Below the pieces are notes generated by a model. It worked only from the letters and a program-made list of their open reading frames with translations, was not told the DNA's origin and ran no database searches. This document shows, one piece after another, positions 264-62,562 of a stretch of DNA of 64,000 nucleotides. Made by a program: the position numbers and the translations under genes. The number at the start of each line of letters is the position of its first letter. Within the stretch, counting starts at the first letter, position 1. The stretch is from Fasciola hepatica (lineage: Eukaryota; Platyhelminthes; Trematoda; Plagiorchiida; Fasciolidae): positions 12,736,501 to 12,800,500 of the forward strand of contig CANUEZ040000179.1 in assembly GCA_948099385.1 (NCBI GenBank), written 5' to 3'.

Positions 264-268
264 TCAAG
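264..268 (-). CDS. Gene A terminal exon: last codon and stop
   Basis: Acceptor TGGTTTTCTTCCTTGTAG ends at 269. The following bases complete the split codon as GCT (Ala) and then give TGA at 266-264, so the product would end ...DKGRA. The 3' untranslated region would run toward position 1 and beyond the window. A stop this close to the acceptor is unusual but matches the frame. Confidence 0.5.
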
Positions 269-3200
269 CTACAAGGAAGAAAACCATTCTTTCCAGGTTC
301 AGCGCAGTGCTTACGGAGATTACGGAATTCAATGGTCGATTAGCCCCCGTTCACTTACCTCGGCCTTTGTCTGTAAAGCAGGAATAAGATGTGAAAATAC
401 CCATGCAAATAATGTGAAACTTTCGAATCAAGGACTACGCCGTCCGTATACACTGAGAAATTCAATCATCATAGATTTGAGAGGTACAAATGCATACATA
501 CATAGACAGGAACACACGAGTCTCATCTCCGAGAAAAACCTTGTGTTCATTTCTTTTGATATCAAAAGTAGAACAACTATACCCTCAACAATAAATGGTT
601 GGAATATGAATTGTTGATCTGATTTTGACTACGTCCACAAAACTGAGCAGAGCCCCTAAAGAAAGCCACAGTATCTGGGATAGCTACTATGAGTGGCCCT
701 CAGGTGTAGATTGGATGGATAACTGTATTGGACCTCTCGAGACTAGACAGATGTGGCAAACAGCCAGAAGAATATAGATAACCATCTGACACCAAAGTTA
801 AGTCATGGTTATGGGGATTCGAAATATTGAGTTTCCGATTCACTAAGGTGTGAACTGAAAGATGTGATCATTACCGATCAAGCGAAGCCATTTCTGCAAT
901 AGATTTTTAAATCCTGGAAGATATAATCGCAGCCCAATGAAAAGTATGGTTTACGTTCAATTTTTAAGTAATAAAACAAGTTTTGCATTGATTTTATGCT
1001 GTTTGCTTACCCGCAGAGACGAGGTTTCTACCCAGTTCTAAAAAAAGAAAAACGTGTTTTTGGGGAGAGGTGGGATGATAAAAGAGATCGATAAACTTTC
1101 CCATAGTGATACACTATACGGTGGTCACTGTTTGTTTTAATTTGAACAAACTCATATTTTGTAATTTCATATTATTTCTGGGAAACCAAGTCGATCTGAA
1201 ACGAGAGCTTCCAGGCGCGTCTTCTTGGTAAAACAAAGTGAATGAAGAACACCACAGTAAGTTCCGTTAAGGGTGTTTTTCCATAAAGTTACAATGTTCT
1301 TCTTCTGAAAATATCTGTTCTCATTTTTTCTTCCTTTTGAATAATTTATTGATACTTCTGAATAATACTTGGAATTTAGCCACGTACTCTGCATCTTCTT
1401 GTCGATCTCCTCTGAAGTTGGAAAACAAATAAAAATATAAAAGTTTAAGTTTCACAAGATTCCAAATAAAGCAATTGATAAGTTGTGCATAAACAGTATA
1501 TTTTGGGAAATAAAATATTGGCTTGGTTAGTAAGGTACCAATTTTCGAGATCAAAACAGCATGACGAATAAGCTCTTTTCCCGTTACTTGTACTCATATC
1601 AATGCATAAAGTTAATATAACTCGCAAAACTGCAATGGGGAACGGCCATCCAGATCTGTTTGTGCACGTGCGTGTGTGCGTGTATGCGTGTGTATCGGAT
1701 CTCAGTGAAGAAAGTTCGAATGGTTGCAAACGTGTTCGGAAACAAGAAGTGGGTCATAGGAGTTCAAGTGCTAGCACAAATTGTTTCTGAGCCCAGAGCG
1801 GAAGACTGTACTCACGGCTTCGTCTGTGACTAACATGCGACTCTTGACAGGTCTTGATTGCTGATTCCGGACTTCGTCATAGTGCGAAAAGCATTTATCA
1901 CCTCTACTGGGTGGCATGATTCCACTAGTTTGGAACAACCGGCACTCATAACTGTCTTAATTGCTCCTGTGTTCAACTAAGCCGGGTGATGTTCAGAACA
2001 CGTTAGGATAAGCGGCTGGTCGTGTGGACAATATACCCAGTTCCAAAGGAACAGGTGATGTACGTAATCTGGCACATAATCCAGTCAGTATTCGATAAAC
2101 ATGGAAGCACACCTTCTACACTGTCTATAGCAACACTGGTTGGATTGCAGTTTTGGGGCGGAAATGCAAGAAGATCGTGATCCCCACGCACCAGCCGGTT
2201 GGCTTTTAATTCTCCATTCACTGAAGCTATCCAGCTACCACACGAAACACGAGCGTTTATCCGCCTGATTCTTCCCTTGGACCAGTTTGCATCCACATCC
2301 ATGGTTGATTTAAACTGCCCACATAGTACTCCATATAAGTGCGTGATAATTTTTATGGTCCATCTCCGGGACTCTTGGCAGTACACCACGCTTCCGAGTA
2401 GCATGATTGCAAGTGTACAACACGACACTCAGATAATCAAACCAATAGAATGAAGTCCCAGCCCGATGCGGAACCTGAGCAGAGTCTTCGAATGACGACC
2501 CAGGTAGGGAGATTAACCGGCTTCTGCAGCAACCAAAAATCGCTACCTGGCCAAACTCTGTAACAACTCAATACAACCACGAGTTAGACCCGTTGACAGG
2601 CATTCACCATAGGCAAGTGTTGAACTGTAGATGTCTCGCTACTCAAACCAAGGAGCGGAGTGCAAAGCTTAGTACAATTTTCTTTAGTATTGTCCACGTG
2701 GCAAAAAATATCAACGGCCTTGTGAAATAATATTAAACAAGTTAGGGTATGCTCATTATACAAACCACATACTCGTTTGCCATGCTCCTTGAAATGACTA
2801 GGCCTACTAGATAACATTGAAGTAGTAAGTTTATCATTCGCATATTTTTGGGACGTTTGTTGTGTTGTGTATGTCGTCAATAAAATCTGAGCATACTGAT
2901 TCGACTGGCACTGTTCGGTTGATATATCGATGAATTCCGTCCAAGGCATATTATTCTTCAGGCTATTGATGGATACCGTGACTGGCGACAGTCTTGGCTG
3001 GTTATCAATATAATATATACATAATATAGTAATATTATATATATATGTATATATATAGCCAGGGAAATCAACATCTCTTAGTGGCTCCTCTGGTAGAGGA
3101 CATGATTTGCCGTTGGATTAGTTCAAGATACTTGTATTACGCTGCAGAGCTATAGTGTCTGGCTTGTGCATAATTGCATTCAGTTCTAGGCTTGAACCTC

Positions 3201-6200
3201 AGTTTCTCTGTTGTGGCGGTTGTTAAATTTATACATTGTTTGTGATCTTTGACTGGCAAAATAGAACAGATGATCTAGAAAAAAGTTTGCTATTACTGAC
3301 CTATTAGTTCATGAATGTAGTAAATAATAAGTCAATAAATATTAGTGCAGACAGAAAGCAAACACCTTTTCAATCAGTTATGGTATCACAATCTGTAGGG
3401 TCAAAAACAGCACACTGTGAATTTAAGATCGAACACTATTAGCTTACGAATTGCGCAGACTATGAGAAAAAAGTGAAAGAAATTTTTGAGATTGCTGACC
3501 AAGACAGAATAAAAATAACTTTTGCACAAATATAACAATCCATAATAATCGGGTTGAAATTTCCCAAATTTCATTTCGTTTCACTGAGTGATGATGGACG
3601 ACGAATTACTAACTCGAAATACCGCATCCTGACTGCTGTAAATTGTGCACCTTTGCTTGAAGTTTTATCAGGTTTCGCAATTAGGTGATAAAGCAGATTG
3701 CTGTGAACAACAAATGTGCTGTCCGTAGAGTACAATGCTGTGGTTGTCTTATCTTCTTCTGGATTTCTGTAGACCCAATCCATTTATTGGTTCCGGAAAA
3801 AGACCCAAATCGACCCGTGACTAGAAATCCACCTTTTCCCGTATCACAAAAGGAAACCTGTCGGAAGATTCCCATTTAAATTTTCTTGCCTATGCAAACG
3901 ATCTGCAAGTGATTCTGCGTGCACCAATGTGAATTGTCTGGAGTATTTGCTTACTCTGACGCTAAAGTAAGGTTTCCTCAATTGACTTTTTGCACTGTGT
4001 CAGAGTGCTGCTTGATGCTTGGCAGTACTTTCTACTTTCGTGATATTGACCCCTGTGGAGTCTATGAAAAGTGGGATCTCACAGAAGTGACTATTTGTAA
4101 TCTTCCCAGGGTTGTGTCTCAACCGAGCCGCCTTCATTCTTTCTTGACTTTGCCGCCACTGTTCTGCTTCACCTTTGTGGGCACGTCTCATTTCTGCTCG
4201 GTGACTGGCATTCAGCTTGCAATGAATATCGATCTCCATTGCAAACTCCGAGCTTGGTCTCGTTTCACCATGCGTGCGATTTCCTGCTCGCGTTTGACGA
4301 ACTTTGGTCTGTGTACTCTCTGACGGTAGTTTGAGTTGTGTTGTTATTGACTGAGTTAAACCGTTTCCAAAGAAACGTAGTTTACCTGCTCGCATTATTT
4401 GACTTGGGTTTAAGCTCCGTATTCAGCCAGTCACTGAACCACTGGAAGACGGTTGTTACACAATGTTTTCGGTTAAGATAGCTTTCCCCACATGTAAGCT
4501 ACGATAAATAATGAAATAAGATCTCACGAAAAAAATCTGTTTGCTTTGAACTTGAAGAATTAGGCTGCCACTTGTTAGACCCCTCACACTATTAGAAGAA
4601 TGGCCTCTGACTATGCTTGCTGTCACAACTTCGGTGAGCGCTAAGCATGGGATGGTTAACCAGCGGCCCTGCGATGAGCCACTTTACAGGATAACATTGA
4701 ATTCCTCCAAAAAAGCCGGGTTGTGTAGGATGTCCAACCAGGGTATTCAGTGACCAGTCAATATAGTCGGCACGACGAAAAAAACCGAAACCCTGGTACG
4801 GAAACAAAGATCAATGTAGAAAACAATGTGAAAGTAACCTTTCTGAAAGGATGTATCATCGACAAGGAATCAGAGTGAGATCACAAAAAGACAGTGGTTG
4901 AGTGTAAAGAAACTAGGCCGGTTGAGAGTCTGCTAACGAATTTCTTTGGAATTTCTAGACGTGTGAAAAAGCTTTAGGTCATACTGACAGCTATACAGAT
5001 TGGAATCACACTCGTGTTTATTCTGAAACTATTGGGGTACAATCTCTTTCCCTTTGGGATTCAGCCAACCCAGACTTATTTGAGATAGAAGCAATTTTAT
5101 CGTTGATAAATAAATGTAAGAGTAGGAATAGACACCAGAAAACCATTCTTTGGAATGAATAAAGCAAACGGAGCACAATTCTCTGTGAAACTAAAATAGT
5201 GAAAGCACGCAGGAGGATCTTTATACTCGTCCTGAAAGTTTGTATTTGGCAGGCTCAACTTTGGACCGGAATTACTTACTAACTGCATCTAATGAACTTA
5301 CAGGTCTTGGGAACGATTTCCAGCTTTTCTGCAAATGACGATTAAAAATAAGTCGAAACAGCCAGTTAATTAGTCTGTCAGTAAATCAGTCACTCAACGA
5401 GGTTAGTGGGTCGGTTTGTCAGTCAGTCAATCGACAGTTCGAGTTCTACGTAGCAGTCCCATAAGGGATAAATGTCGATATACCACAAAATGTCTTTTGC
5501 AATCCCTTAACTATCTGTCGATCATCTATCAAATAAAAGGCTTGGCTTTTGTTAAATTTTAACGCTGAAGAACGCAATATTTCATTACCAATTGACATTG
5601 CCTAGAAAGGACACTGACAGGATAATCGCAAATTGGTGAAAGTGAAAAAAGAGCAGATATACACCACTTACTTAGCAACACGGTAGATACTTGTGCTAAA
5701 ATAGGACATGAAATACAGTTATTCTGTCAAACTAAAGTTTCATTTGGCGTGGGATTTACAAATGCACATACAACAGGAAATCGATTTTGCACACTCTTGT
5801 GGTATCACTTTACCAATTCCACTGTTATCTTCCTTCACAAATACGAATGACTAACTTTCCGCCAATATATTGATAAACGCACTCGGAGGTCAGTGTACTT
5901 TTCTCCTTAGATGGCCTCGAAAACACTAACTGTTTTGACCATGTGCTGGATGCTTTTCCTGTTTACGTGCTTACGAATAAACGGAGTACTGAGGTTCCTT
6001 GTACTATCACTAAACCTGAATAGAATCATTACCCAGACATGAAGGAAAATTTAACCGCTGGTTTCTTCGGCCCTTACACTACAGAACGACTTTGCAGTTA
6101 CTCAGACAAAATTCAGAAAACTGTGTTTGAATGTCAATAATAAACTTTTTTCCTTACACCTGTAAAAGGCAGAAAAAGCAGTTCTTCTGGGATAACGTTT

Positions 6201-9200
6201 CAACGAAATCATTCAAAAGGTAACTGAATTTGAGTTGTCAATGTGTGCCAATATTATATCAAACGTGCGCACGGATTTTAAACAAGAAACAAATGAACTG
6301 GTTTATTTAGAAAAAATACGCTCTATACGGCGCCTTATGCTATGAAATACACTCCTAGGCTAATGATAAAACCGGTAGCTGGTTACAAAACACAGTGAAC
6401 TTTATTGTTAATGACTGGAATGCACCGTCCAGGCAAGCTTCCAGTTCTGTTCGGGATGGTCTCAAGTTCTTCGCTGTACCATTCCTCGAGTATGGTGGAA
6501 GTCAACCCGTGCAAAGTGCCGAAAGCTCTCCTAGCGGCACAGACCAACCCCGTAAACAGAACTCAGATTATTTCCGTCGAGATCAAGTCTGGACATCCCG
6601 TAAACCAGTGCACTGTCTTGATGTTTCGGTACAGCAACTGCGTTTTGGTGAGACTGGCCGTATGAGGGACCATGTTATCACGTTGAAATATCGTTGCTCT
6701 TAGTCGATTTCTCGGAACCATCGGGAGTAAAAGTTTATCCAACGTTCTAATGTAGTAGTCAGCCGTCCGCTTTCATTCTGTGCACGCTAGCGGAAATTTT
6801 TGATTCGCGTAAATTGCATCTTGGACAATCAAAGAGTTACCAGAAAAAGCTCGAAAACCGAGACCCACATCGCTTTTCTTGAATTTGTGGAAGCAGACTA
6901 AATTAAACTCCTGGTAATAGCCAGATAGCACATTATTCCTTTCACCAGCTCAAATGTGTGTACTTGATGATCTTAATGACATCTGCCGTTTACGTACGTC
7001 GAAGCACCACACAAAAGTCTTTCCATGGCCCTGTCGGAACATTTTCATCACAATTCATCCATTCCCGATAAACGCATAGTGATTCGGATCCTTAACTAAG
7101 ATACAAATGACTATTGCTGGCTCGGAAATGTTCCGGATACTTTGGTCTACTGTCAGTACAAAAAATTCGGTATCACCTCAATTCGGTCGAAATCTTGCGA
7201 TACAGTAGAATTCCGGATTATACAACTGATACTACTCTCCATCGCCAAAAATACATAATAGACACTATTGTTTAGAGAGAGAGAGAGAGAGAAAGGAGTA
7301 ATATTAGTGGTACAAACTGGGATTCAACAGTACATCAGCTTTTCGATCGATTTGAGATGATCCCGAATACTTCAGACAGACTGTACACTTGTTTTCGAGT
7401 CTGAATATGCCAGTATTTTTCCTTGTTCTAGGTCAGACAGTCTTGTACTTGAAACTTCCCCTTTGTTTTGATAAATGAGTTGTTATTTCCAAACAAAAAG
7501 CATAACTTGAATGAACTTAGTTCACTTATCTCGTATGACGCAAAAAGTGTTGAATAACCTATCCTGCCTAAGGTAGGTGAACGTGTCTGATTTATTAGTG
7601 AGCTGAAACATCCACATGCCGCATCCGATCTCCTCATGTGTTCTCATTCGAAAGTTATCGCAGAAGAACAGTGTGGGTCTGGTAGAATTTCGTGCTTTTT
7701 AATTCAACTGCCAAAATGTGAATTTGAATTTCCTGTTAAACTCCACAGCCGTAACACGGGAAAACGCTTGCGAATAAAAACTACCCTAATAAAGGACTGA
7801 ACGAATTATTTATGAGGGCGTCGCAGACTGGTATGAATAACACTTGTTTCTTGAGCAGGAAGGGGGCTGCCGCCAATAAATTGACTGTCAAGTGGGAAAA
7901 CGTATACCGGACTTACTATGTTGACATTCTGTGATTGCGAAAATAAAGAAGTTGGTATATTGCACAAGGTAGATTTTCCTTATTCTTATGTTGCTTTCTT
8001 TGGCCTAAACAAAATCATAAACATCCCAAAACTTCTTCAAATTTATCTTCCAACTGCACTCATGGGTATATTCTCGTAGAGGAGGTTTGTGACAACTTTG
8101 TCGGTAGGTGGAATAGAAAATGCGATCCTTATCTGGCACCGTTATTCAGTTACTTTTAATGTCTGCTAGAAGTGAGGATTAGGTGCACACATTCGTGCTT
8201 TTATAGTTACCATGTGTCCAATGATTTTGATTCTACACAGGAACAATCGAATTTTATTCTTGGCAACTGAGAAAACTTATAATAGCTAACTTTCAGTGGA
8301 CAAAGAAGATCCAATTACTTACTCCGCACTCCATCCGACCCCTTAAACGGTCATCTCTTGCTATTATGCACCTACGGAACATCATATTTTCTAATATCCT
8401 CTCATTTTCCATAGAACCAAAACCGATTGTGCATGTAGAGATATGAGATCTCGATAGGTAATGTCTTCCCAGCTCTAAATCACACCGGGTATTACATTCT
8501 AACCCTGATCCCAGTCGCTAGCATAAAGCATACTGTGCTAATCACTGATAGGGCTTGGGACGAACAAAGGTGGATATCGGGGGTGCCGTTGTGTGGCATA
8601 CGACGTAATAATGACCAAGCCCTTTACTCGACGACACCGGAAGGTAGCAGCTGAAACCGGAGCACAGAAGTGCGAGGTTAATGGTTGAATAAACTGAAAC
8701 TGAATGACCATGCCATAGCCCACCTGGGAGAAGAAGAATGTGTTGATTATTGCTAATCAGCCTTGTACAACACAGAGCTCAGTAGCTAAGTCACTTGGTA
8801 TTTTGAGCAAGACTGTTTACAATGTTATGTCCAATCGAGTGTTTATCAAGTACTTCCTATACACTGGCGCTTCTCCGGAAAGGTGTCACCTGAGGGCTAA
8901 AGAAAATTCTCAAGCATCAAATGAGGTGACGTTGTCAAATTCCATTCACAGTTTCTAGATGAATTTGTTACGAATCAGTCTAAGCACGGCAAAGAAGAAG
9001 AAGAATGTGTCATTGCGGGCGAACAAATCAGCGAAACTCAGAAGTTGCTGGATCCATTTAGCGAAAGCTTGCGTGGAGCTTGGACATGGCATATGCAAAT
9101 TCGTAATGCGATTTGAAACAAACAGTAACCAATTGCTCTTCGTTACTTATCATGTGGTCCCTCATGTCTTCCTCTCCCAGCGATTTTCCTCCCTACTTAC

Positions 9201-12200
9201 AGGAGTACGTACTACTGACAAATGCGATGTGCCGCAGTTCCTGAAAGGTACCCAATATTTTTGAAAACCCAAGGGATTCATCTTAACGGGCAATTGACTA
9301 CATTGTGAATGAACTAGACTGAATACCAATTTTAGCTAGTGATTCCGTTTTAATTTGCCCTGTACGACTTTTTGGGCAAAGCTCTGGAACATGTGCCACC
9401 TTCCTCTATATATACTGTGCTTTTGGCGGGAGAAGTAGTAATTTGGCCGAAGAAAACCTCCAACCTTGGGGGGATTAGAACCAGCGCATGGACTTTACTC
9501 CAATCGTCCATCAACTGAGCTACATGATTACACCGGGACTTGGGATCATCTCACTACCAGATTGTGCTGATAAACCACCTCAGTTACTTTGATAGGTTAC
9601 CCCTGCTACAGTGGACATTTTGTTGGACGTTTTCAGCGGATTTTCCCGGAGAATCAATCAGTTTCAGCCAACTGAGAAAGCGGCCGCAGTACGATTACAA
9701 GCTGCAGTCAAGGGGATAATGACAAATGTTTACTGATTCTTGGTATGACCCAGAATTTCAGCTGGAAGACAGCGCTTGGGCAATACCCAAGAATAGTAAC
9801 GCCTTTAAAACTTGTAGTCCTTCAAAATTCGTCAAATTGTACAAGACTGCGATTCGCAATAGAAACAAGTATCGTTGGTCTGTCAAACATAAGTGAGGAA
9901 AAGGTGGATGTGTAAAAGAAATCATTTGCCAGTTGTATCAGAAACCTCAGACGCCGGAAACTATACCAGTGGTGGCGTCCAACCAAAAGTAGTCGACGGG
10001 GCGCGTTTTGACTTCAAAGCAATCAAATACCTCTCAAGGTGACTGCGACAAAAATGTTTTGCCAGGAATAAAGACGACGGATAATTCTGAATGTGTGTAA
10101 ATAAGGTACCCATTGCTAAGGAACTCACTCATCGCATCCATATTTTCTGAGGCTCCTGAAGAATAATTAAAACTGCAGATTAGCATTGCGATTGCAGATG
10201 ACTTGAGGGCAAAAATCGATATTTTGGCCAAGCGTAGTTTAAGTAGTCGTAGACAGAGTGACCACTTCAAGTTCGTCAGCGAAGCGCTGTATATTCAATG
10301 CTGTCTTGCATTTAATTTATCACGAATACTGCGTATTTAGTCGGTCTCAGCTAGGCCTAATATTTGTTATCAGGTATTGTGAATTTCTCGTATAATCGTT
10401 CGACTACTGTCGCATGACCTTGAAAAATCTACTCACCTACTGATTAGGTCTTTTCTACCAACCAAACCAAGCTGGCTACTCGTCCGAGGTCAGCGACAGA
10501 TAGGTTTTCTATCACGTAGTGAAGAAACTTCAAATCTCAAGTTCCGTACGTTACTTTCGTGGAATTTCAGTTTGGGAACTTAGTGCTAAAAGTTCGCTTT
10601 TTCTTACTCTGTTAATCATTAATGAGGGAATCGAATATTATTTAACAAAATTCTGAGCCTACTACTAATTATTTAGGTTAACCATGATCCCTCATGAAAC
10701 CGTTATCTTCGTTTCCTGTTTATCAGCAATATTTGGTCTAGGCACAGAGACGAACAAACAAAACTTGCCCTAGAGCAAGTTTTCCACAGGTTTATACTTT
10801 ATTGAACACTGCATATTTTTCTGAATCACACGCAAATCAAATTAGATAAGTGAATAATCCATCTACGTAGCTCTTTTTCTCAACTAGCGCATCCTTAACT
10901 TGATTGATACTTTTCCATTTCTTTACTTTCAGCTCCGATATCTAGTTAACATCGTTGCTGAAATGTTGGGACGGGGAACAATTTGTTGGTTTCCTTTTAT
11001 TAACCTCTTTGGCAGGGGACGTCACACGTCGTGTCGGTGTTACTTCTATCAATTGCATACTGATTACAAATGTTGCTAGTAGCATGAGTCAGTACGCGTT
11101 TATTTTGGTGCAGTGCTACTCAAGTGCGCAAAACAGAGTGAGCTCGTTGGTGCTTTAAATAGAAACAAAATATCGACGAAATATGAATTTAACCTTTGAC
11201 TCGGCCAGACAGGGTACCTAGAAGTGAAGGTGAAAATTCAAAAAAAATCATTGGTTCCTTTTGATGGTGTAAATGAACGACATTTTCATCTCCCTATAAG
11301 AGTGGAATTCAGTCAATAGCTTCTATAAGCTTGATAATCGGCAGAACTGACTTGATGATAGGCATAGCAGTACTGATATCGTGATGAATAAAATAAACAC
11401 TCAAATTACTTATGGGGCTTTTTACAGTGACATCTGAACTTGCATGTTTAGTACCTTATCATAATTTGAGGGTTTAATGGGTGTATCAAGTTTTTCAAGA
11501 GCGTTAACCAATATGGATAAGTGCTGCATACGACAAATGTTGATTCATGAGAAAATGTCTTTGGCTCATGGGTAGCTCCGGTAGCGTGTTAAGGGTAAAT
11601 GGAGCCAATCTTTGAACTCTGCTTTAACGGAAAAGTATTGTGATCAAAGTAGATGAAATAGGTACTTAAAGTTAGGTATGGAAAAAATGTAGCTCATCAT
11701 GAGCAGTCGTTATTTGTTCCTTTAGGAACCTTGCTGCATGCGTTCTGTATTGCAGGCATCCTCAAAACTTGGGTGGGAATGATATTCTCCATAGTAAAAT
11801 CTTCCCATAACCCTAACACAAGTGACTAACACTAATGATGGCTGGACTGTCGGATCATGCGAGGGAATCAACACAGAAAAAATGGGCTGCTGTCTATCAC
11901 AAATGTGGTTTGCTGAAGTCCTTCAAACAGCTTGGTGTTAAAACTTCCAAAATTTTACAGCGACTCGTCTGACAAGTCGTACGTGTGCAAAATTAGAACA
12001 ACATCGTTTTTCCAGAAGTTTGTCTGGCTAGACTATAAGCTTGGATCTAGTCTTCGAAGTTACAACACTTTCTAATTTCTCCACTAAGCGTAGACTTTAT
12101 CCCTTAATTCTTTGATTGTGTACAATTTTTTCTATTGGTAATAATTTTATTGACAAATACGGAGACAGGAATTTACTGCTAAAAATAGGTATTTCAAAAG

Positions 12201-14573: not shown

Positions 14574-14633
<60 letters not shown>

Positions 14634-16010: not shown

Positions 16011-16050
<40 letters not shown>

Positions 16051-47109: not shown

Positions 47110-47300
47110 TGAACGCTCAACTCACCATTGAAAAGCATGGAAGCACTGTACAGCTGTTTCATCCTTGTTGGGAATCATCAGCAGTGCACATCGACCGAGC
47201 CCACACGGGGACTCGAACCCGGAGTGAACGACTGTGAATCGAACACCTTAACCGCAAGGCTATCCGGGCTGGTTCTCAACGGTTTGCTGAACATCTACAT
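47110..47300 (-). repeat. tRNA-derived SINE copy 1
   Basis: Minus strand reads CCAGCCCGGATAGCCTTGCG then GTTAAGG (A box), and later GGGTTCGAGTCCCC (B box), followed by a unique tail containing TGATGATTCCCAACAAGG. The head resembles a serine/leucine-type tRNA. It shares the tail with 24.7 kb and the head with 48.8 kb. Confidence 0.8.
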
Positions 47301-50320: not shown

Positions 50321-50329
50321 AAAAATACC

Positions 50330-51939: not shown

Positions 51940-52008
51940 TAGACTTGACAATGTACGCTTTCGGGTTGTTCTGCGCTGTTTTACTGACCGCCTATTCAGC
52001 TGGTGCGG
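51940..52008 (+). CDS. Gene E first exon (signal peptide)
   Basis: Acceptor TTTAAACAATTTTCAG ends at 51939; 11 bases later comes ATG 51951. Nineteen codons of textbook signal peptide, one extra base, then donor GTAAGC. Confidence 0.85.
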
Positions 52009-55000
52009 GTAAGCAAAACTATTCATGCACTTATATTTTCCAAACTGTTATCGAAATTTCGTCATAAATATTTTGAGAAAGTATAATTTTTCTCTGAACC
52101 GATTTTTTCTTATCAATTATGACCCAGCACGATATCAATTAGACATGACGAACCATTTTTTGAGGTGAATCCTTGTGGACAAACCCCGATTAAAATCATT
52201 TGATGACGTACTCTAAATCCATAGAGAAGTGACAAGGAACTGCCGGCGCTCGAGCTCACCGGGTTTCCCCGCAGATGGCCATCAAGGCAATATGGTACGC
52301 TGACTCCTGATCAGAGCAAGACATATTCGCATGGTAATGTGAATATCACAAGTGAGGAAAAGGGTCCTATCTGCGGAACTCTTCTCTAAAAGGTGTATTT
52401 TAGTTGAAAGGGTTAGGTGAATTTGTAAAATCTTAGTGAGGCCATATTTTGACATTCTCCGGGATCAGAGGATTTTCCTACATTAACTGCCATCAGGTGC
52501 CTAATAAGGATAAGCCTAATGTCTTATTCCACGAGAACGATCATCCTGCGAATTGAGACTACGGTGAAACGCACAAATTATTTTTTACTGGTTTCAAGAA
52601 GTGAGTTGTTGACGGGTAGTGGAAACTCATTTTCAATAAATCGGCCGCATCTAAAAATGTCTTCCCTTGCTTGATCATTTTCTAATTGCAGTTTCAATTC
52701 GTAGAGGTAAGTGTGAGAGTTGAAATTGGCTATCCGCTCAGCTATTCGTGCCGTATTTGGGCACGGCTACATATGGAACTGTTTTCTAGACTTGTATTCC
52801 TCAGTAAAACCGGCAAAGCTTGAGTGTTTCTATAGGATGCCTTTTATTCGAGCTCACCCCTGGGTTAACATGCACTGGCTCCCTTGATTTAAAATATTTT
52901 GAATAAAGTTAAATTATGATTTGTCCTGGAGAAATTCAACAACAGTAGTGTCAATATTTCTGACCTGGAAAATGCCATCAACATGTGCCGTCCAAGAGAA
53001 AGTGAGCACTTTAAAAATCCCCCTATATAGTTCAACGACGTAGCAACTATTAGGAGGTGTTTTTCCCCCTTTCGAGATGTGAGCTTTTCAGGAAAGAAGT
53101 GATTCGTCAAGCAATGAACTCAGTCCAGCAGGAAATTAGTATCAGTCGATGTAATTGAAAGTCACTTGCACAATCTATAAATACTGTTTCTAGTTTAAGA
53201 ATACGGCTGCTATGGGTTGAACATGTGGACCCACGTAATCGAGGGTACTTCAGCTTCAGACCTAGTGCCAGAACATAAATAATGAAAGCACCTGTTCCCA
53301 TATGGATACTATGGTTGCGATATGTGTTAGACACATGTTAAGGTAGGTGAATTCTCTAAAATTATTGGCCAAGTTGGCAAGTCTACCACATTGGAGGAGT
53401 GTCTTTGATACTCTTCCAGCAATTTTAATCATGCAAGACGTGTAAGACCTCCTTGATGTAAAGGTTCACGAAACTCCCCTTCCGCATGGTCAGAAGCTTA
53501 AGGCAAATAGCCTGGTGTCTGAATGAAAGAGACACTTGCATTTAAACTTTTCTTCGTTCATAGAGGTACCTCTCATGTCTTCCCCAGATGCCATGGTTAG
53601 ATCTAACGCTCCAAGTTTTAAATTATTTTCTCAGAAACCCCCACGAATAATCGAAATTTTTAACTGAAGCTAAGAACTTATTCACTGACCTCTTATGAAT
53701 AAAGAATAGTACCTATGAACCATTTTATCAATGGGTTCATGACATATTACCCTTAGTATTGTTCTTCCGTTACGTAGATCGTTTAGCCTAGCGAGTCGGA
53801 TATCAACGGATTGCTTTTTTAAGTTAACATGACACTGACCCCTTTTGTTACTAGGCGCCTACTTGCATAACTAATAGTCCACGGAAAGATAACAGTTCCA
53901 AATTGCACAAATTACCAGACGGAAACTAGGTGAGATAGAGGTGGTTACATAGACCCTCTACTTCAGATAGGGAGGGATTTGGCAGCTATGCACTTTCGCT
54001 GCTGATTCAAACGAGTCGGTTCATACCCCAGCATGTCGATGTAGTACTGATCAATGATGTTACTGTTGTACAAAAGAAACGCTTTTTGTTTATCGTCACA
54101 TGGTATCACGTCCTACGTCGAGTTTTCTCCCTGTTTTCTTGCACAAATTATCTGAGCATATACAGTTTTTACATGACCCGTTTTTTTATTTTACCGACTG
54201 AACAGTTATTTTTCGTTTGTTTTGTTAGACACGGCTTGTAAGCTTAGAGTTTTCACGTAACCAACCAAGTGGGCTATAATATTTCTCCCACGACTGACAA
54301 AATAATCGATTTTTGAACCACAGAGTAATTATATGTACGAGGAACTATGAAAACGTTTTTGGTCAGCTTTCTAAAGAGGCATTCAGGGAAGGCGGGCTTT
54401 GCCGAAGAACATCGGGAGGGGTTTCTATTGACTTCATCCGCGAGTCAAAGTATATAGCAGTGGATTTTAAAAATGCTTTCGGAGTTCAACTTGCTCCGAT
54501 TGCACAGTGAAGCTCTTCACACACTTCAGTTCACATTCCTGATGGGAGGAAAATTCAATATTTAACCTGCGCAACTTGTTTGCCAGTATTCGGGAAATAA
54601 CGAAATTTTCCAGATACTGAGTCTGTTATGATTTATCTAGACTACACAAGACTGTGAATACTGCTTTATTATAAGATATTAGGGGTAAATGTTCTTTTAA
54701 TGAGTATTCGGTCCTCATAAAAATGGATTGAGTGAATGATTTATGTGGTGATTCTTTATATCCGTATAATTAGTTAGGGACTTGATTTGTAGTTAAACGG
54801 ATTATTCACGAAAAAGCCATTTTCATATCACCTTTGAAAACCATAGAGACGTTGAAGGGCTGTTTCGTCTGCATTATTTGGAATAATCAAATATACCCTA
54901 ATGAACCAAGTTATATAATAATCGAAACTCCCACTAGTTACATACATAAATCAATAAATCTCTGCGGACTATTACCAGCGGAGTGTGATTTCTTGTTGAA

Positions 55001-56268
55001 TTGAGACAGCAATGGATAAGCCGTCTATCTTAGAAGTCTGCCACTGTGTAGGGGTTGAGTAACTCCATTACGCATCCCATAATTAAAGGGCGCTATGTCA
55101 CATAATGTTGAAGTAAAACAAACCGTTCTGAATTAATCCAGATAACCCGATGTTTAGATAGGTAACTCAAAATCGTTTAGTCCGAGCTAAAGCCCTAATG
55201 GGGGCTCAGTGCATGAGTACTGCTGATGGATTTAAACAAGCTACGATTCCATTTATTGACCAATAGATGATAATCAGTCTCCTTACCAGTCATTCTGACT
55301 GATTTCAGGCTTGACTAACGGCACGATTATGCATTGTTCCAACATAAAAAGTTGGTCATTCGTCGAGGAAATCTATACATACACCATTTTGCCAGGTGTG
55401 AATGAGCACACCGACCACGGCAATGAATAAAGTTGTTATCATGAGCTTTACTAGTTATTTTGATTTGATCCTGAACACCTAAATATAATGAGCAATATAT
55501 GTAACATTGAATGATAAGCTGTTGTGAGAAAATGTCCATCGTTCGAATCTAGACTTGGTATGGACATGATGTGATCTACGATTTATGTTTTCTCTAATCT
55601 CAGTGGACGATGACTGCACAGATGATTTGGGTAAGGATGACTGGAAATAAGTAGAGATGGTTAGTGATCCGTTGAGGAAATCTATGCATACACCGTTTTG
55701 CCATGTGTGAATGAACACACCGACCACGGCAATGAATAAAGTTGTTATCATGAGCTTCACTAGTTATTTTGATGTGATCCTGAACACCTAAATATAATGA
55801 GCAATGTATGTAACATTGAATGATAAGCTGTTGTGAGAAAATGTCCATCGTTCGAATCTAAACTTGGTATGGACATGATGTGATCTACGATTTATGTTTT
55901 CTCTAATCTCAGTGGACGATGACTGCACAGATGATTTGGGTAAGGACGACATGGAAATAAAAATGAAAAAATAGAGATATGTATTTTTATTGTAATGGCT
56001 CCGTCTCATCTTACTGTATAAATGCTTGAACACAAATCGACCCCATGAAGATAGGTGCTATTCTTCAGGAAATCTTCCCAATGGGGACCAATGTGAACAT
56101 ACTGTCTACGTGGCTGAAACAACCGTGATAATTCAAGAAAAAATACAAGCCATTGAAGCTTTACAACAATTTCCTCAAACGAATTCGAGAAATTCGACTA
56201 CACTATACTCGAACATAAAAAAGTTTCCTCAAACAAGAAAAATCAATTATAGCAATGAAAGCTCATAG
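51940..56268 (+). CDS. Micro-exon gene E (complete; acidic secreted peptide)
   Basis: The clearest gene in the window. Exons: 51940-52008, 52692-52706 (15 nt), 54229-54237 (9 nt), 55604-55630 (27 nt), 55913-55939 (27 nt, identical copy) and 56069-56268. ATG 51951 opens a 19-residue signal peptide, MYAFGLFCAVLLTAYSAGA. The frame then passes through every exon in phase 1: V-SIRR / D-TA / L-DDDCTDDL / V-DDDCTDDL / G-NLPNGDQCEHTVYVAET... to TAG at 56266. The last exon contains an imperfect internal repeat (QQFPQTNSRNS, KKFPQTRKINYS) and an Asn/Ser-rich tail. The mature product would be about 90 residues, secreted, acidic at the N-terminus and basic at the C-terminus. Architecture is that of trematode MEGs; the sequence family is unknown to me. 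Confidence 0.8.
52692..52706 (+). CDS. 15-nt micro-exon, gene E
   Basis: Acceptor TGATCATTTTCTAATTGCAG and donor GTAAGTGT. Phase 1 reads SIRR, a dibasic site right after the signal peptide that might be a processing site. Confidence 0.82.
54229..54237 (+). CDS. 9-nt micro-exon, gene E
   Basis: Acceptor TTTTTCGTTTGTTTTGTTAG and donor GTAAGC around nine bases. Phase 1 reads TA after a split Asp codon. Confidence 0.75.
55604..55630 (+). CDS. 27-nt micro-exon, gene E (copy 1)
   Basis: Acceptor TTTTCTCTAATCTCAG and donor GTAAGG. Phase 1 reads DDDCTDDL. Confidence 0.87.
55913..55939 (+). CDS. 27-nt micro-exon, gene E (copy 2)
   Basis: Identical to copy 1 in exon and acceptor; donor GTAAGG. It adds a second DDDCTDDL unit and a second cysteine. 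Confidence 0.87.
56069..56268 (+). CDS. Gene E terminal exon
   Basis: Acceptor GGTGCTATTCTTCAG, then 66 phase-1 codons to TAG 56266-56268. Length 200 nt. It begins NLPNGDQCEHTVYVAET; one Cys. Confidence 0.78.

Positions 56269-56526: not shown

Positions 56527-56528
<2 letters not shown>

Positions 56529-56567
<39 letters not shown>
56529..56567. repeat. TA dinucleotide microsatellite
   Basis: About 39 bases of alternating T and A, shortly after the gene E last exon. Confidence 0.95.
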
Positions 56568-56569
<2 letters not shown>

Positions 56570-56946
56570 CCGGGACACTGACGAAGTAAACATGCAAAGC
56601 GAAATTATCCTTGGGCCCCTACAACATAAAATAACGTGTGACGAATTCTTCTGCGTCGGGTTTCACTTGGACCAGTGTGTTTTGGGCTTTCCTGGTTCAC
56701 CTCTAAATTGATTTTCTACTGTGTTCAGTTGAGTAGAAGAAAAAGTAACACATTTCTTTCACCAGCCTTTGTCTTTAAACCAGTCTCCGTTTGAAGTGGT
56801 TATTTTTTCAAAAAGCCCCATACATTTGATGAGAACGAGATTATTCGTCAGAAGGAAATATTTTCAATCAGTTAAAAATTTGGGTTAAACTACCTGGACA
56901 CCACCTCCATATTTGGATTCTCTTTCTCTCTGTTCACGTTTTGCAG

Positions 56947-56973
56947 TACCAACGGAACTCGCGTTGAGCCGGA
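56947..56973 (+). CDS. 27-nt micro-exon, gene M or E
   Basis: Acceptor TGTTCACGTTTTGCAG after a long CT-rich tract, and donor GTAAGT. Phase 1 reads PTELALSR. One of the best exon signals in the window. Confidence 0.87.
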
Positions 56974-59900
56974 GTAAGTCCATTAGATTTTTTCACACGA
57001 TTGCGTAGGGTAGATTGTCCACGGCAATTCCTACTATTTTGAATATTCGTCAAAAAGCAACCTAATACGAATTTGCGGTTGTATGGAAACAAACAGCTGT
57101 GGCTAGCAATAGTCAAGAAGAATATGCTGGTTAGCTGGTGGAAGTTGTGAAGAATCCTACTGGAAACCATTTCTCTCATCTGAAATAGTTAAACAGTGCT
57201 GAATGAAATTCCTTACGAATCCTTCCTGTTCATCACTGTCGATCACTCAAAAAAGAGCTGTTCTTCACTTGGTGGATCGTCTGTTAGGTGGCTGATTGGT
57301 TGGCCTGTAATCAGACTAGAACAGTCCATCAAAATAATGGACGGATAGGGACACCAATAGGATTTCATCTATCTCATTCCTGTTGTCCTTGCCATAGAAC
57401 AGTTTGGAATACCTGGACGCAGACTATATCCCGCGTTCTTGAATATCTCGTACGGAAGCCATGAATTGGGTGTAGTAAACATCAAAATTTTTAGGAATCA
57501 CTAGTTCAGTGAAACAAGGATTGTTTGGAGCGAACTGCACCCGATAATTGTTCCTTTATTTTTCTTTCTACCTTTCAAAAGAGCTACCCGGTGAGTTTCG
57601 AACTTTTCCATAAAGACCATGATGATTGGCCGTGGTCACACGGAAAACACCGTGGGATTTATACCGTTTTGCTCCCTATTCGAATCCTCAAGCCGCTGCC
57701 GAGCCCCTCAGTCAGCAGCTTCTAAGGGGCTACAAATCCCCTTCTGAAATACTATAAAATTATTACAATATAAAAAGGGAGTATATTACATAACAGAAAG
57801 AAAGAGAAAAGGTTGCTTTGGACTTGAAATTTGTAGGACGAGCGAAGTAGCGCCAGATTTGAAACATATGATTCTCAGCATGATCGTATCGTTCCACATG
57901 CCTGTCCTATCAGCATTCGCTATGCTTCAACCAATACAAGGAGCTCATTGTGGGAGCCTAGTTTAATGCGGTACAGGCTCAAGCTAAGTGTAGGGCTTGC
58001 AGCCACATCGAAGCAACGTGACGATGCACTCTAGGATTTAGGGCCCCTTCGTGACCGTTAAAAATCACTATTAGTTTATTCAGTACTCTGTCCTTCTAGG
58101 GAAGTCAAGTTCTGGTGCCCAAGATATCTGATCAACTTTATCGTGTTCCCGACCTGTTCAGTGAGCTTGCAGTGGTTGGTATTGGTAAACGACATCCTCA
58201 GTGACAGCCCATATAAGGCAAGAATTTCAGAGTCTGAGTCGAAGCCCCGTTGTTTTGCCTATTCAGTCCCGCAAGCGTGAAGCGAAATAAGTGTTTTCAT
58301 ATTTCACGAAAAGCTACTACAATGAATTCCCTTATTTCATAAATAGGTCTTACTATATACACCTTGTAGATGTTTACCATGACGACACTTATCTCACCCG
58401 ACAGCTTTACCCCTACTAAGCCGTACTTTTGAGCGCGTTTTGTGTTTGAACGTTTTATTGCGCAACAACAGTGGCCAAACTCAATATAGAATTCACTCGT
58501 TTTATCATCATACTAGGTAACCAATGTGATGGTGAAAAGCTGCTCTGCACTCAAGCGGAAATGGCTTATTATCTTTACAGTCGAAACATAACATTGTCGA
58601 GTGCAGCCATCATAGTCTAACTAAAGTTACTTGTCATTATTTTATTTCCATTTATAACACTAGCTTTGTTTTTATCGATCGAACATTTTGCTCAAACTGG
58701 GATATGCGCAGTGACTGAAACTGACTGATGGCACAAATAAGCGAATTTATTTTGTTTCTACTAATCAGTAGTGAAGAAATTAACAAAATATCAACAATAA
58801 AAAATCTGTTTCTACATCACTCACTCAGACGAGTCAAACAACAAAAATTCACAGACTGAAGAGAAATAATTAATTTTTATAGCCGCTAAAAATTAACAAA
58901 GCGTATCCCATCGTCAATAGGACAACAGACCTGCAAAAAGTTGACAGCCTCGACTTCATCAATCGGCCGAACAACAAGAAAGATACGCACAAGAGCAAGT
59001 CCTCACGGGTACAACGGAAAGAAAGCCAAAATGCACACTCTAAAAACGATCTGATTTCTATGAAAAGTGGGCGCAAAATCAGATCAGCAAAACGACCGTA
59101 TAAGTCTTCTCATGTAGCGTTGTGCCTATCTCCCTAGCTTTCCCTTCTCGGTAATAGTAGTATATTTTATTTTCCGGTGAATGCCGTGATAAGAGTGGTA
59201 ATTGTTGACAGTTACAAGAAATACACCTCGATTCTGGGAAATGTAATGCAAAGAGCACAAGCTGGTTGAATTTTCGTTTGAAGATGGATCAGCCGGCAAG
59301 CACTCAAGGAACAAAGGACGCAAATCTGTTCAGTTGCTTGGTACAATATAAGCTGATCATAGACTAAATAGTAGTTATTATTCTTCACACAAACCGGACG
59401 GATACCTCTGAATTTGTCGAATCAGTATTGCTTAATTTGCATTAATATATTTTTCCAGCACAGTATCCTATTTTTATGAGATAAAAATCTTCAGAGGCTT
59501 TTTATTTGAGACGGCGAAGATCAAATGGTGCGAGTCGTTCTAACCCCATTGGTTCGAGATTTGATCTCCACCAAGGCCGGAGATTTCCACGGAAACGCAA
59601 TAGTCCACCTTATCCACGAATGTTCTATTCGGAATGCATGTGGTCCTTGGCACCAATTCTAGGGATCATAATTGACAGCGACCCTCGAAATTATATCCAT
59701 TCTCTTGTAAAATTGATAATATCCTCTTCCGGTGAACCCCTAGTCCAAGCACGAAATGAAAAAAAAAACAACTTTATGAACGACTTAAAAAGAATGCTTG
59801 ATGGCTAGTGAACGTGTAGACTAGTTATTTATCAAAACTAATAAATAGTACAAACGGGATCCAAAAGTGAAACGAGCCTGAAGACGCATCAATGGATCAT

Positions 59901-61426
59901 TATCGGATCTTGTACATTTTGAAAACACGTGAATGCAGTAAACACAGCGGTGCTTCATTGTTCCAGGAGTCCATTTCCTTATAAGAAATACCGTCAGCGA
60001 AGGCCTTCCGAGTTGGAATAAAAAAGAATATTACTTTTAAGTAGTCAGAGCATAGTGGAAAAAACTGGGCAACGGTGAATTGCTTCATCATAGCGAATGT
60101 TCCTTCTCGTGGGGAGAGGGCTTTAAAAAGGGTCGCTTAGGTTCCAAAGAAAAAGCTCATCCTACACAATCCAAAAATAAGACAACAATCAAGCTCGCAA
60201 GCTTATCTTTTCGAAATTTTGATTCAACAAATGAAATCTTTTGGAGTTACGCAAATGATTCCTATCTCGCTATTTCGTACTAGTATGTCTGTATCAATAG
60301 GGCCATTCTGGAAATTGAAAAAATGTGATTCGGTTCATTGGAGAAATTTTAGTTTATCGAATGATATATTAAAAGCGATAAAAAACATGTTATGCTACAA
60401 AACTTCCAGAATAAATTATAACGGTCTGCTTAATGTCACTATTTGTATCCATCCCCAGCTCCGTGCAACTGCCCAAACTCCGAAAGTGAGTCCTTCAAAA
60501 AATTGTAGTTATTTACAAGTGAAACACTTGTCCCAAGATGGAATAATCTTGGTTAAAAAAAGCTTGCTTCTGAATACGACTGGCTTCACGACGGAGTCGG
60601 CCATGTGTGTGTATTTGTTTGTGCGTGTGATAATCTGAGCAGTGAACTGACGTAGAATAAGTTTTATCTACATTGTAATCGCGCTTTCAGCGTGGCAGAA
60701 GTGTAAAACCCTGGGTTCGATCGATAGAAACAGATCGCGATTCTCAAGGCCACTTGTAATTAAATGAGCTCTCATATACTGTTTGGACAAGGTAAAAAAT
60801 CAATGCACCAAACTGCATGTTTCTTCTAAGCCGTCTTAGTAAAGAAAACGTCCCGAGTACAGTAGAAAGTAAATAACTCTTTCGAGTGGCCATCGTTCGA
60901 GTATCCGATGTCCGTATGCGACCTTTGCTCATCTGATGCAGTCGACCAATTAAATGCTTCCGTGTATTGATGACACAATCACTAATTGTCTGTTCCGCAC
61001 TAAACATCGCACGCCCGTACTCATGATTGCCGTACGCCTCGTGCTCACTGGGCGTCTGTCCGTATTATAGTTTTCCCATGGATTTATGCGTCACAGTATC
61101 CATCTTATCCGCCCCAACAGTGTTTTGAGTAAACGAGAAGATAGTGAAGCCATCCCCAAATAGAAGGTTTATTTTGAGGGAACTAGCTTGTTCATGGATA
61201 ACAAGGGAAGCTTCCGTGTTTTATTCATATTTCCAAGCAGAAATTGAACTTAGGGGAAAGATTTTGCTGGATAAAACAGCACATTTTTGTGAAATTTCCA
61301 GATAAACTGCTCTCTGTCTGTCGTTATTTGACCGGAACTTACATAGATGAGGAATTGTACTTCATTGTCCCTGGACTATGAGACTGTGTGCAAACTTTAT
61401 TACAGCTGGTTGCGGTTGTGATACTG
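56947..61426 (+). CDS. Candidate micro-exon gene M, partial (or gene E extension)
   Basis: Three plus-strand micro-exons, 56947-56973 (27 nt), 57582-57590 (9 nt) and 61406-61426 (21 nt), follow gene E in the same phase. They chain as PTELALSR / K-LP / A-GCGCDT. No first or last exon was found for them alone. They could be spliced to gene E upstream exons (junction G|TA = Val), with the 200-nt exon as an alternative ending. Confidence 0.5.
57582..57590 (+). CDS. 9-nt micro-exon, gene M or E
   Basis: A very pyrimidine-rich tract (TTTTTCTTTCTACCTTTC) leads to AAAAG; donor GTGAGT. Phase 1 reads LP. Confidence 0.55.
57840..58450. other. Interval, possible old repeat
   Basis: Slightly richer in G+C, no exon signal, no motif recognised. 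It may be a decayed transposable element. Confidence 0.25.
58821..58855 (-). CDS. Gene L terminal exon
   Basis: Acceptor AATTATTTCTCTTCAG, then CEFLLFDSSE and TGA. The TGA lies within a consensus GTGAGT, which would otherwise define a 31-nt exon. Confidence 0.55.
58821..60091 (-). CDS. Candidate micro-exon gene L (complete, three exons)
   Basis: Minus-strand exons 60091-59992, 59039-59007 (33 nt) and 58855-58821. The first encodes MMKQFTVAQFFPLC... then a hydrophobic DYLKVIFFFIP and ends in phase 1 at a modest donor GTATTTC. The 33-nt exon reads E-CAFWLSFRCT. The last reads L-CEFLLFDSSE then TGA. The product is about 55 residues, hydrophobic and with several cysteines. No junction stop. The first exon lacks a nearby acceptor, unlike genes C, D, E and F. 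Confidence 0.5.
59007..59039 (-). CDS. 33-nt micro-exon, gene L
   Basis: Acceptor CAGATCGTTTTTAG and donor GTGAGG. Phase 1 is open for 10 residues (CAFWLSFRCT). Confidence 0.62.
59992..60091 (-). CDS. Gene L first exon (possible signal peptide)
   Basis: Two ATGs (60091, 60088), 33 codons, hydrophobic core LKVIFFFIP, then phase-1 donor GTATTTC. Confidence 0.45.
60258..60638 (+). other. Unassigned ~125-codon open frame
   Basis: Open plus-strand frame ending in TGA at 60638. Composition is mixed, Ser/Lys/Ile-rich, with two segments that could be exposed loops. No splice context or family. Confidence 0.2.
61406..61426 (+). CDS. 21-nt micro-exon, gene M or other
   Basis: Acceptor TGTGCAAACTTTATTACAG and donor CTG|GTAAGC. 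Phase 1 reads GCGCDT, with two cysteines in six residues. Confidence 0.65.
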
Positions 61427-62130: not shown

Positions 62131-62324
62131 ATGTGTGCTTATCTTTTACTTTCCACGGTACCTGGAATGAGGATAGTGATCTATATAAACCCTGCCTTCT
62201 CATCTCGGGGTTATGTGGCGGAAATGATGAAGGAAAAATTAACCAATCAGAAAAGAATGAGACCAGAATCGCGGACACCAGGAATCAGTCAGCCATTTAG
62301 CGTCACTGTAGCAACTGGTTGCAT
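62131..62324 (+). CDS. Possible first exon of a plus-strand gene
   Basis: ATG 62131, leader MCAYLLLSTVPG, 64 codons in all, then donor GTGAGT in phase 2. The latter half is polar (YVAEMMKEKLTNQKRMRPES). Not MEG-like; no acceptor upstream. Confidence 0.35.
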
Positions 62325-62515
62325 GTGAGTTTTTCTGGGGAAAAAACCCATGACAAAACAACTAGTCTGAAGCAACTTTCAACCAAAACTCCCACACATA
62401 TGGTCAACTTGCCGTCGTACTAACGAGCATAAATGGTACAGAAAATATAGCTCTCATCAGTAGTCAACATATTACGTGACAGAAAATGTGAAATGGGTCC
62501 CTTGTAATTGGGAAC

Positions 62516-62562
62516 TTACGAAACAAGTGGAAATGTGAAGGTTTGTCTCGTGTTTCGTTTGT
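62516..62562 (-). CDS. Possible terminal exon of a further minus-strand micro-exon gene
   Basis: Acceptor GACTTCATTGTTTCAG, then phase-1 codons KRNTRQTFTFPLVS and TAA. The stop overlaps a GTAAGT donor that would define a 43-nt exon. Upstream exons are not identified; 61375-61343 has no place in it. Confidence 0.4.

What the first reader, a model, noticed from the sequence alone, without database searches (positions are those of the whole stretch)
264..62562. A cluster of micro-exon genes: dozens of 9-54 nt phase-1 exons
Reading both strands for acceptor + short length divisible by three + consensus donor gives a dense set of hits, over 20 on the minus strand of 0-28 kb alone, nearly all open in phase 1. 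Chained in order they make at least five signal-peptide-led products (A, B, D, E, L) with different sequences but the same build. MEGs are known in Schistosoma and other parasitic flatworms (established). That several lie head to tail in one 64 kb window, plus one on the opposite strand, is what I observe. If right, this locus is a factory of small secreted, exon-shuffled peptides.
Basis: partly seen in the sequence, partly recalled or inferred. Interest (0 to 1): 0.95.

Follow-up and report, generated by a model that had tools for sequence, protein, structure and literature searches.

The report
Two fluke-type micro-exon genes
This stretch of DNA, probably from a parasitic fluke, holds two genes chopped into very short exons that seem to encode small secreted proteins; one of them looks as if it grew by repeating the same block of three tiny exons about six times.

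Summary
The micro-exons are real; the number of genes claimed is not. With acceptor, 9-54 nt and GTRAG donor, minus 1-28000 has 15 hits divisible by three (other length classes 2 and 6), all 15 open in phase 1; none of 1,000 dinucleotide shuffles reached 15. Plus 51901-64000 has 11 (others 3 and 1; 10 of 11 open), again 0 of 1,000. The other three regions show no excess. Each block opens with one signal-peptide exon, 26585-26511 (-) and 51940-52008 (+). I therefore read two divergent genes, both running off the window, not five head-to-tail products. The visible parts meet published micro-exon-gene (MEG) criteria. A tRNA-plus-type-I-hammerhead repeat like schistosome Sm-alpha points to a trematode. 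New in the minus gene: its 18 micro-exons are 12, 24, 27 or (once) 36 nt long and follow the order 24-27-12 in 15 of 17 steps (3 of 200,000 permutations). I read this as about six copies of a three-exon, 21-residue module, with one exon unfound. In the plus gene a 309-bp tandem duplication carries an identical micro-exon twice. There are no transcript data; splicing is inferred.

The parts
26511..26585 (-). Signal-peptide exon of the minus gene (75 nt; ATG at 26565; hydrophobic core; ends in phase 1, donor gtgagtgc). An alternative acceptor giving a start at 26605 scores slightly higher (12.4 against 11.7).
26345..26368 (-). micro-exon 24 nt, phase 1
23000..23035 (-). micro-exon 36 nt, phase 1 (stands in a 24 slot)
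21918..21944 (-). micro-exon 27 nt, phase 1
20206..20217 (-). micro-exon 12 nt, phase 1
18844..18867 (-). micro-exon 24 nt, phase 1
18403..18429 (-). micro-exon 27 nt, phase 1 (weaker acceptor aag; length predicted by the module)
17238..17249 (-). micro-exon 12 nt, phase 1
16114..16137 (-). micro-exon 24 nt, phase 1
13774..13800 (-). micro-exon 27 nt, phase 1
12666..12677 (-). micro-exon 12 nt, phase 1
10129..10155 (-). micro-exon 27 nt, phase 1 (direct junction with the preceding exon would make TGA; a 24-slot exon is expected between them and was not found)
7917..7928 (-). micro-exon 12 nt, phase 1
5672..5695 (-). micro-exon 24 nt, phase 1
5302..5328 (-). micro-exon 27 nt, phase 1
3448..3459 (-). 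micro-exon 12 nt, phase 1
1388..1411 (-). micro-exon 24 nt, phase 1 (weaker donor gtacgt; length predicted by the module)
1011..1037 (-). micro-exon 27 nt, phase 1
359..370 (-). micro-exon 12 nt, phase 1; gene presumably continues beyond the window
51940..52008 (+). Signal-peptide exon of the plus gene (69 nt; ATG at 51951; ends in phase 1, donor gtaagcaa)
52692..52706 (+). micro-exon 15 nt, phase 1
55604..55630 (+). micro-exon 27 nt, phase 1, first copy in the 309-bp tandem duplication
55913..55939 (+). micro-exon 27 nt, second copy, identical to the first
55351..55960 (+). 309-bp tandem duplication, 95-96% identical, holding an intron-exon-intron cassette
56947..56973 (+). micro-exon 27 nt, phase 1
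57582..57590 (+). possible micro-exon 9 nt (weak acceptor)
60459..60485 (+). micro-exon 27 nt, phase 1
61406..61426 (+). micro-exon 21 nt, phase 1
63092..63118 (+). micro-exon 27 nt, phase 1
63610..63648 (+). micro-exon 39 nt, phase 1; gene presumably continues beyond the window
47143..47269 (-). tRNA-headed repeat (47198-47269) with type I hammerhead motif (47143-47187): taxonomic marker, not part of the genes

Best explanation
The window holds two divergent micro-exon genes (MEGs) of a parasitic flatworm, most likely a trematode. The minus gene runs leftwards from 26.6 kb, the plus gene rightwards from 51.9 kb, and both seem to run off the window. Shown from sequence: each has one signal-peptide exon ending after the first base of a codon, then a chain of 9-39 nt exons, all symmetric and open in that same phase, across intervals of 0.1-3.5 kb. 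Inferred: the transcripts are spliced into small secreted proteins; because every exon keeps the frame, exons can be skipped or repeated without shifting it, giving many isoforms from one gene. Inferred from exon lengths and order: the minus gene grew by repeated tandem duplication of a three-exon module (24+27+12 nt = 21 residues, about six units). The 309-bp duplication in the plus gene is the same kind of process caught at the level of a single exon.
For: 3n excess with 0 of 1,000 shuffles in minus 1-28000 and plus 51901-64000, none in the three other regions. Phase-1 openness: 18 of 18 minus and 9 of 9 plus micro-exons, against 13 and 14 of 18, and 7 and 4 of 9, in the other two phases (openness was part of how weak exons were picked). 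One signal-peptide exon of good quality at the head of each block. Lengths: 13 of 15 consensus hits fall in three length classes; 1 of 100,000 uniform draws does so. Order 24-27-12: 15 of 17 steps, 3 of 200,000 permutations; with the 16 strong exons alone 11 of 15 steps, 1,749 of 200,000 in either direction. Of five predictions of missing exons tried (three firm, two optional), two firm ones hold: the best candidate of any length from 6 to 60 nt has the predicted length. In the twelve gaps without a prediction no best candidate is 12, 24 or 27 nt (one gap had no candidate). Peptides of the 27-nt slot are more alike than residue-shuffled ones (p 0.008). MEG criteria met within the window (PMC7653826). 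No Pfam domain at E <= 0.05 in the three minus frames of 1-27998. tRNA + type I hammerhead repeat, a combination reported for schistosomes (PMC2770079, PMC4918200).
Against: No cDNA, no orthologue, no named species. One junction, 12666 to 10155, would read TGA, and the 24-nt exon predicted between them was not found; the two optional predictions (27 and 12 nt in 26344-23036) also failed, the 12 ranking fifth. The 24- and 12-nt slot peptides are not significantly alike (p 0.24 and 0.23), and no DNA similarity between modules was found. The splice matrix was trained on the hits themselves, and I had seen the two gap-filling exons before the gap test. The hammerhead scores below Rfam's gathering score. 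The 3' ends of both genes lie outside the window.
Confidence: 0.88

Rival explanations
1. One reading: five or more separate short MEGs, several head to tail on the minus strand.
For: MEGs do cluster in tandem in schistosomes (table passage in PMC4350168) and in Hymenolepis (PMC7653826). Other signal-peptide-like starts exist: 16350 (-) with one weak and one out-of-phase donor, and 17797 (+) and 63316 (+) with good sites.
Against: Only one start with strong acceptor, donor and phase in the minus array. The 24-27-12 order runs on through the array with one missing slot. Strand 1-28000 plus, where 17797 lies, has no micro-exon excess.
Confidence: 0.08
2. An aphid-type 'bicycle' effector gene (Hemiptera): many small exons that nearly all start at codon position 2, led by a signal peptide.
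For: Same phase and similar exon number: bicycle genes average about 17 exons and almost all internal exons start at codon position 2 (PMC9168663, passages).
Against: No Cys-Tyr-Cys motif within any of the 27 exon peptides (some bicycle homologues lack it too, and motifs across junctions were not tested). Window G+C 40.3%, higher than I recall for aphids and their kin (recalled, not tested). tRNA + hammerhead repeat of the schistosome kind in the same window.
Confidence: 0.03
3. Chance: short splice-like patterns picked from 64 kb by eye.
For: Such hits do occur by chance at about 4 per 28 kb and length class.
Against: 0 of 1,000 shuffles; no excess of non-3n lengths in minus 1-28000 or plus 51901-64000; all 15 and 10 of 11 hits open in one phase; only two of five regions.
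Confidence: 0.01

Closest known systems
Micro-exon genes (MEGs) of Schistosoma, Echinococcus and Hymenolepis
   Same: Signal-peptide exon followed by long runs of short symmetric exons (6-81 nt in PMC10526429, 6-36 nt in PMC5825161) separated by introns of 0.1-5 kb (PMC10526429 part 1; passages of PMC7653826, PMC4671649).
   Different: Here the minus-gene exons are 12, 24, 27 and once 36 nt, whereas 15 nt is commonest in S. mansoni (PMC10526429). No sequence relative was identified.
MEG-4 (antigen 10-3) of S. mansoni, 27-bp exons and 81-bp tandem repeats
   Same: Repeated small exons and a longer repeat (review PMC4015677, passages; the 1988 paper is known only by its title, not held).
   Different: Here the module is 24+27+12 = 63 nt and no DNA similarity between copies was found. 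That the 81-bp repeat is three 27-bp exons is my recollection.
MEG-26.2 and 26.4 of S. mansoni
   Different: There one further domain ('d2') is aligned; here about six modules.
Sm-alpha / Sj-alpha SINE-like elements (taxonomic marker)
   Same: tRNA-like part and type I hammerhead ribozyme in one repeat (PMC2770079, PMC8490949, PMC4918200 passages).
   Different: The window copy is read as tRNA-Val by ARAGORN, not Gln; its hammerhead scores 28.8 bits, below Rfam's cut-off of 34.
Aphid bicycle genes
   Same: Many small exons nearly all starting at codon position 2, signal peptide, putative effectors (PMC9168663 passages).
   Different: No CYC motif within the exons here; the hammerhead repeat points to a trematode.

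Membership tests
Micro-exon gene (PMC7653826 criteria) | Micro-exons: <70 nt and divisible by three | tested here: met
   Minus 18 of 19 exons, plus 10 of 10 (its 69-nt signal-peptide exon and the doubtful 9-nt exon counted) in the window
Micro-exon gene (PMC7653826 criteria) | At least seven exons, at least half micro, a run of at least four | tested here: met
   Runs of 18 and 10; models end at the window edge and are predictions
Micro-exon gene | Signal peptide, mostly or wholly in the 5' exon | tested here: met
   Hydrophobic core 3.09 and 2.79 (Kyte-Doolittle, 9 residues), phase-1 donor; no trained signal-peptide predictor was available
Micro-exon gene | Long introns, about 0.1-5 kb | tested here: met
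   142-3309 nt (minus, 19 exons) and 282-3485 nt (plus, nine exons used)
Micro-exon gene | Longer 3' flanking exon | not testable with these tools
   Both 3' ends seem to lie beyond the window
Micro-exon gene | Transcribed, alternatively spliced, product secreted | not testable with these tools
   No transcript or protein data on hand
Micro-exon gene | Sequence membership in a named MEG family (1-32) | not tested
   Chained product not made; no MEG sequences compared
Micro-exon gene | Host is a parasitic flatworm | tested here: inconclusive
   tRNA + hammerhead repeat points to trematodes; no species name; one ORF and one relic gave no homologue
Bicycle genes (aphids) | Internal exons start at codon position 2 | tested here: met
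   27 of 27 listed micro-exons open in that phase
Bicycle genes (aphids) | Cys-Tyr-Cys motifs | tested here: not met
   None within any exon peptide; motifs split across junctions not tested; some bicycle homologues lack it (PMC9168663)

The most novel reading that the evidence does not exclude
Long MEGs can be built as tandem arrays of a fixed multi-exon module. Here a 24-27-12 module (21 residues) was multiplied about six times, and exon length and order outlive intron similarity and most peptide similarity, so the exon-length string is a usable record of how a fast-evolving secreted gene was assembled. Because every exon and every module keeps the frame, variants could arise by skipping single exons or whole modules.
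Probability: 0.6. Interest if true: 0.6.

Novelty: new member of a known kind. Interest (0 to 1): 0.45.

Why it matters
MEGs are hard for gene finders and their functions are poorly understood; PMC7653826 says that orthogroups cannot at present be set with confidence. A 26-kb gene whose exon-length order still shows a duplicated module would give a way to trace MEG descent without sequence similarity, much as gene structure did for aphid bicycle genes (PMC9168663). The recent 309-bp exon-cassette duplication in the neighbouring gene shows a likely mechanism. The exon lengths also differ from the 15-nt exons commonest in S. mansoni (PMC10526429).

Tried and rejected
Rejected: five genes; DNA-level tandem paralogy within the minus array (within 1-28000 only a CA/TG repeat matched); homology of the two signal-peptide exons at DNA level (local score 18 against shuffled mean 14.6, p 0.15); a similar length module in the plus gene (lengths 15, 27, 27, 27, (9), 27, 21, 27, 39; gap candidates of mixed lengths; its four different 27-nt exons are not alike, p 0.25). 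A 24-nt exon between 12666 and 10155 was sought; only weak ones turned up and none passed the matrix. The best candidate of any length there is 21 nt at 11372-11352 with a weak donor. Pfam scans of three-frame pieces (E <= 0.05) gave nothing but DUF4313 at 15 bits, below its cut-off of 27. Scanned: minus 1-9999, 9003-18000, 18001-27998, 28001-37998, 39001-48000, 54003-64000; plus 18001-27998, 28001-37998, 39001-48000, 44003-54000, 54003-64000. Not scanned: plus 1-18000; both strands of 37999-39000; minus 48001-54002. Protein searches for one ORF (4003-4422 minus) and one relic RT-like ORF (42799-43200 minus) gave no hit at E <= 0.01. A tRNA-like stretch seen by eye at 9420-9560 (-) did not align well with the hammerhead repeat. 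The search of the window's own genome did not complete.

Papers: PMC10526429 part 1 of 5 and passages; PMC5825161 section 19 and passages; passages only of PMC7653826, PMC4350168, PMC4671649, PMC4015677, PMC3961193, PMC10399815, PMC9168663, PMC2770079, PMC8490949, PMC4918200, PMC4398949, PMC3723592. Others were seen only as search listings. DeMarco 2010 and Davis 1988 are not held. I do not claim that the module pattern is unpublished: searched 'micro-exon', 'exon duplication' and 'trematode' (at least two of three; 15 of 48 papers listed) and no title or abstract start listed there describes it.
Full report
Observation. On the minus strand of 1-28000 there are 15 hits of 3n length, 2 of 3n+1 and 6 of 3n+2. 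In 1,000 dinucleotide-preserving shuffles the 3n class has mean 4.2 and maximum 12, so 0 of 1,000 reach 15. All 15 are open in phase 1; one of them lies inside the signal-peptide exon. Shuffling within 1-kb blocks (200 shuffles) gives the same picture, and a stricter pyrimidine rule gives 11 against 0 and 2. Plus 51901-64000 has 11 against 3 and 1, 10 of the 11 open, also 0 of 1,000. Plus 1-28000 (2, 2, 3), minus 28001-64000 (6, 4, 6) and plus 28001-51900 (5, 1, 1) show no 3n excess over shuffles.

Gene models. A splice-site matrix was made from 24 hits chosen by eye (17 minus, 7 plus). At a combined score of at least 14, minus 1-28000 has 22 hits of 3n length, all open in phase 1, and 6 and 5 of the other lengths. 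Leaving out three nested alternatives, these are the signal-peptide exon 26585-26511 and 18 micro-exons. The matrix was trained on most of these, so the score ranks rather than tests them; one search is the independent test. At the same score the plus block has 12 hits of 3n length (11 open) against 1 and 4; they give the signal-peptide exon 51940-52008 and up to nine micro-exons, one of them (57582-57590) doubtful. Both signal-peptide exons have an acceptor-like site before the ATG (20 and 11 nt; a second one lies 40 nt before the minus ATG), so an upstream non-coding exon or spliced-leader trans-splicing is likely (inference).

Number of genes. A relaxed scan for ATG + hydrophobic core + donor + upstream acceptor gave 7 rows on each strand, some of them from simple repeats. 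Only 26565 (-) and 51951 (+) combine strong sites and a phase-1 end with a block of micro-exon excess downstream. Two further candidates have good sites: 17797-17872 (+), on a strand that shows no excess in 1-28000, and 63316-63370 (+), inside the plus block and too near the window's end to judge. Two divergent genes, about 25 kb apart at their starts, are the simplest account.

The exon-length module. Thirteen of the 15 consensus hits fall in three length classes (12, 24, 27); 1 of 100,000 uniform draws is as concentrated. In order, the 18 micro-exons read 24, 36, 27, 12, 24, 27, 12, 24, 27, 12, 27, 12, 24, 27, 12, 24, 27, 12. Fifteen of 17 neighbour steps follow 24-27-12-24 (36 counted as 24); 3 of 200,000 permutations do as well. 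For the 16 exons with strong sites alone, 11 of 15 steps do, with 1,749 of 200,000 permutations as extreme in either direction. Other scores on those 16 gave p 0.001 (27 followed by 12; units needed), 0.057 (no two 12s adjacent), and 0.005 after trying all slot orders. The module says where exons are missing. Five predictions were tried. In the gaps 18843-17250 and 3447-1038 the best candidate of any length from 6 to 60 nt is exactly the predicted 27 and 24 nt. In 12665-10156 no 24-nt candidate passed. For the first gap, 26344-23036, a 27 and a 12 can be asked for on one parse: no 27 passed and the 12 ranks fifth of 20 lengths. In the twelve gaps with no prediction the best lengths are 45, 17, 43, 8, 10, 14, 58, 40, 11, 46, 33 and none: never 12, 24 or 27. 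I had noticed the two filling exons before running. Slot peptides: the 27-nt slot is more alike than shuffled (p 0.008); the 24 and 12 slots are not (p 0.24, 0.23). No DNA similarity between modules was found. So the module rests on length and order, with weak peptide support.

A weak point. Spliced directly, 12677-12666 and 10155-10129 would meet in a TGA. The module predicts an exon between them; the best candidate of any length there is 21 nt at 11372-11352 with a weak donor, which by its end bases would give TTA and AGA at its two junctions. This is unproven.

Fresh duplication. In the plus gene a 309-bp tandem duplication, 95-96% identical, carries acceptor, 27-nt exon and donor twice; the exon is identical in both copies. 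Being symmetric, both copies can be used without shifting the frame. Philippsen et al. (PMC4350168, passage) mention a transposon-associated exon duplication in MEG-3, so exon duplication in MEGs is known.

Which organism. No genome was available and two protein searches gave nothing. Rfam finds a tRNA-like stretch at 47198-47269 (-) and, 10 nt downstream, a type I hammerhead at 47143-47187 (28.8 bits, below the gathering score of 34). Partial relatives lie at 24752-24814 (+; the tRNA end and the first half of the hammerhead), 48869-48937 (-; the tRNA's first half) and 49039-49132 (+; the hammerhead's second half and the tail). Schistosome Sm-alpha and Sj-alpha repeats are SINE-like and carry hammerheads, and Sm-alpha-like elements were found through tRNA-Gln matches (PMC2770079, passages). 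A study of metazoan hammerhead repeats reports a full tRNA only in the schistosome ones (PMC4918200, passage). This points to a trematode and weighs against the aphid rival, whose bicycle genes share phase and exon number with this locus (PMC9168663, passages).

What it works like and what it is. The published MEG criteria are met in the part visible. Named-family membership was not tested. Function is inferred from the class: MEG products are described as secreted or membrane-anchored and alternatively spliced (PMC4350168, PMC5825161 passages), and some have amphipathic helices thought to act on host cell membranes (PMC5825161, PMC4671649 passages). I did not test any such property here.

Noticed in passing
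window 47143-47269 (-), with partial relatives 24752-24814 (+), 48869-48937 (-) and 49039-49132 (+): tRNA-derived SINE-like repeat with a type I hammerhead ribozyme motif, resembling schistosome Sm-alpha elements.
   Followed up: partly
window about 6359-6810 (-): Looks by eye like a decayed Tc1/mariner-type transposase; no Pfam hit.
   Followed up: partly
window 42796-43200 (-): ORF that looks by eye like a decayed reverse transcriptase; no Pfam hit, no homologue at E <= 0.01. G+C is highest here (0.469 at 42001-44000).
   Followed up: partly
window 50300-51250: Long degenerate CAT/ATG trinucleotide-rich tract with strong strand skew (GC skew -0.284 in 50001-52000).
   Followed up: no
window 35201-36158: Imperfect inverted repeat (arms about 76-80% alike, 494 nt apart).
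   Followed up: no
window 17789-17872 (+) and 63316-63370 (+): Two signal-peptide-like exons with good acceptor and donor and a phase-1 end. The first lies on a strand without micro-exon excess; the second is near the window's end.
   Followed up: partly
window 12666-10155 (-): Junction that would read TGA; an exon is expected in this 2.5-kb interval.
   Followed up: partly
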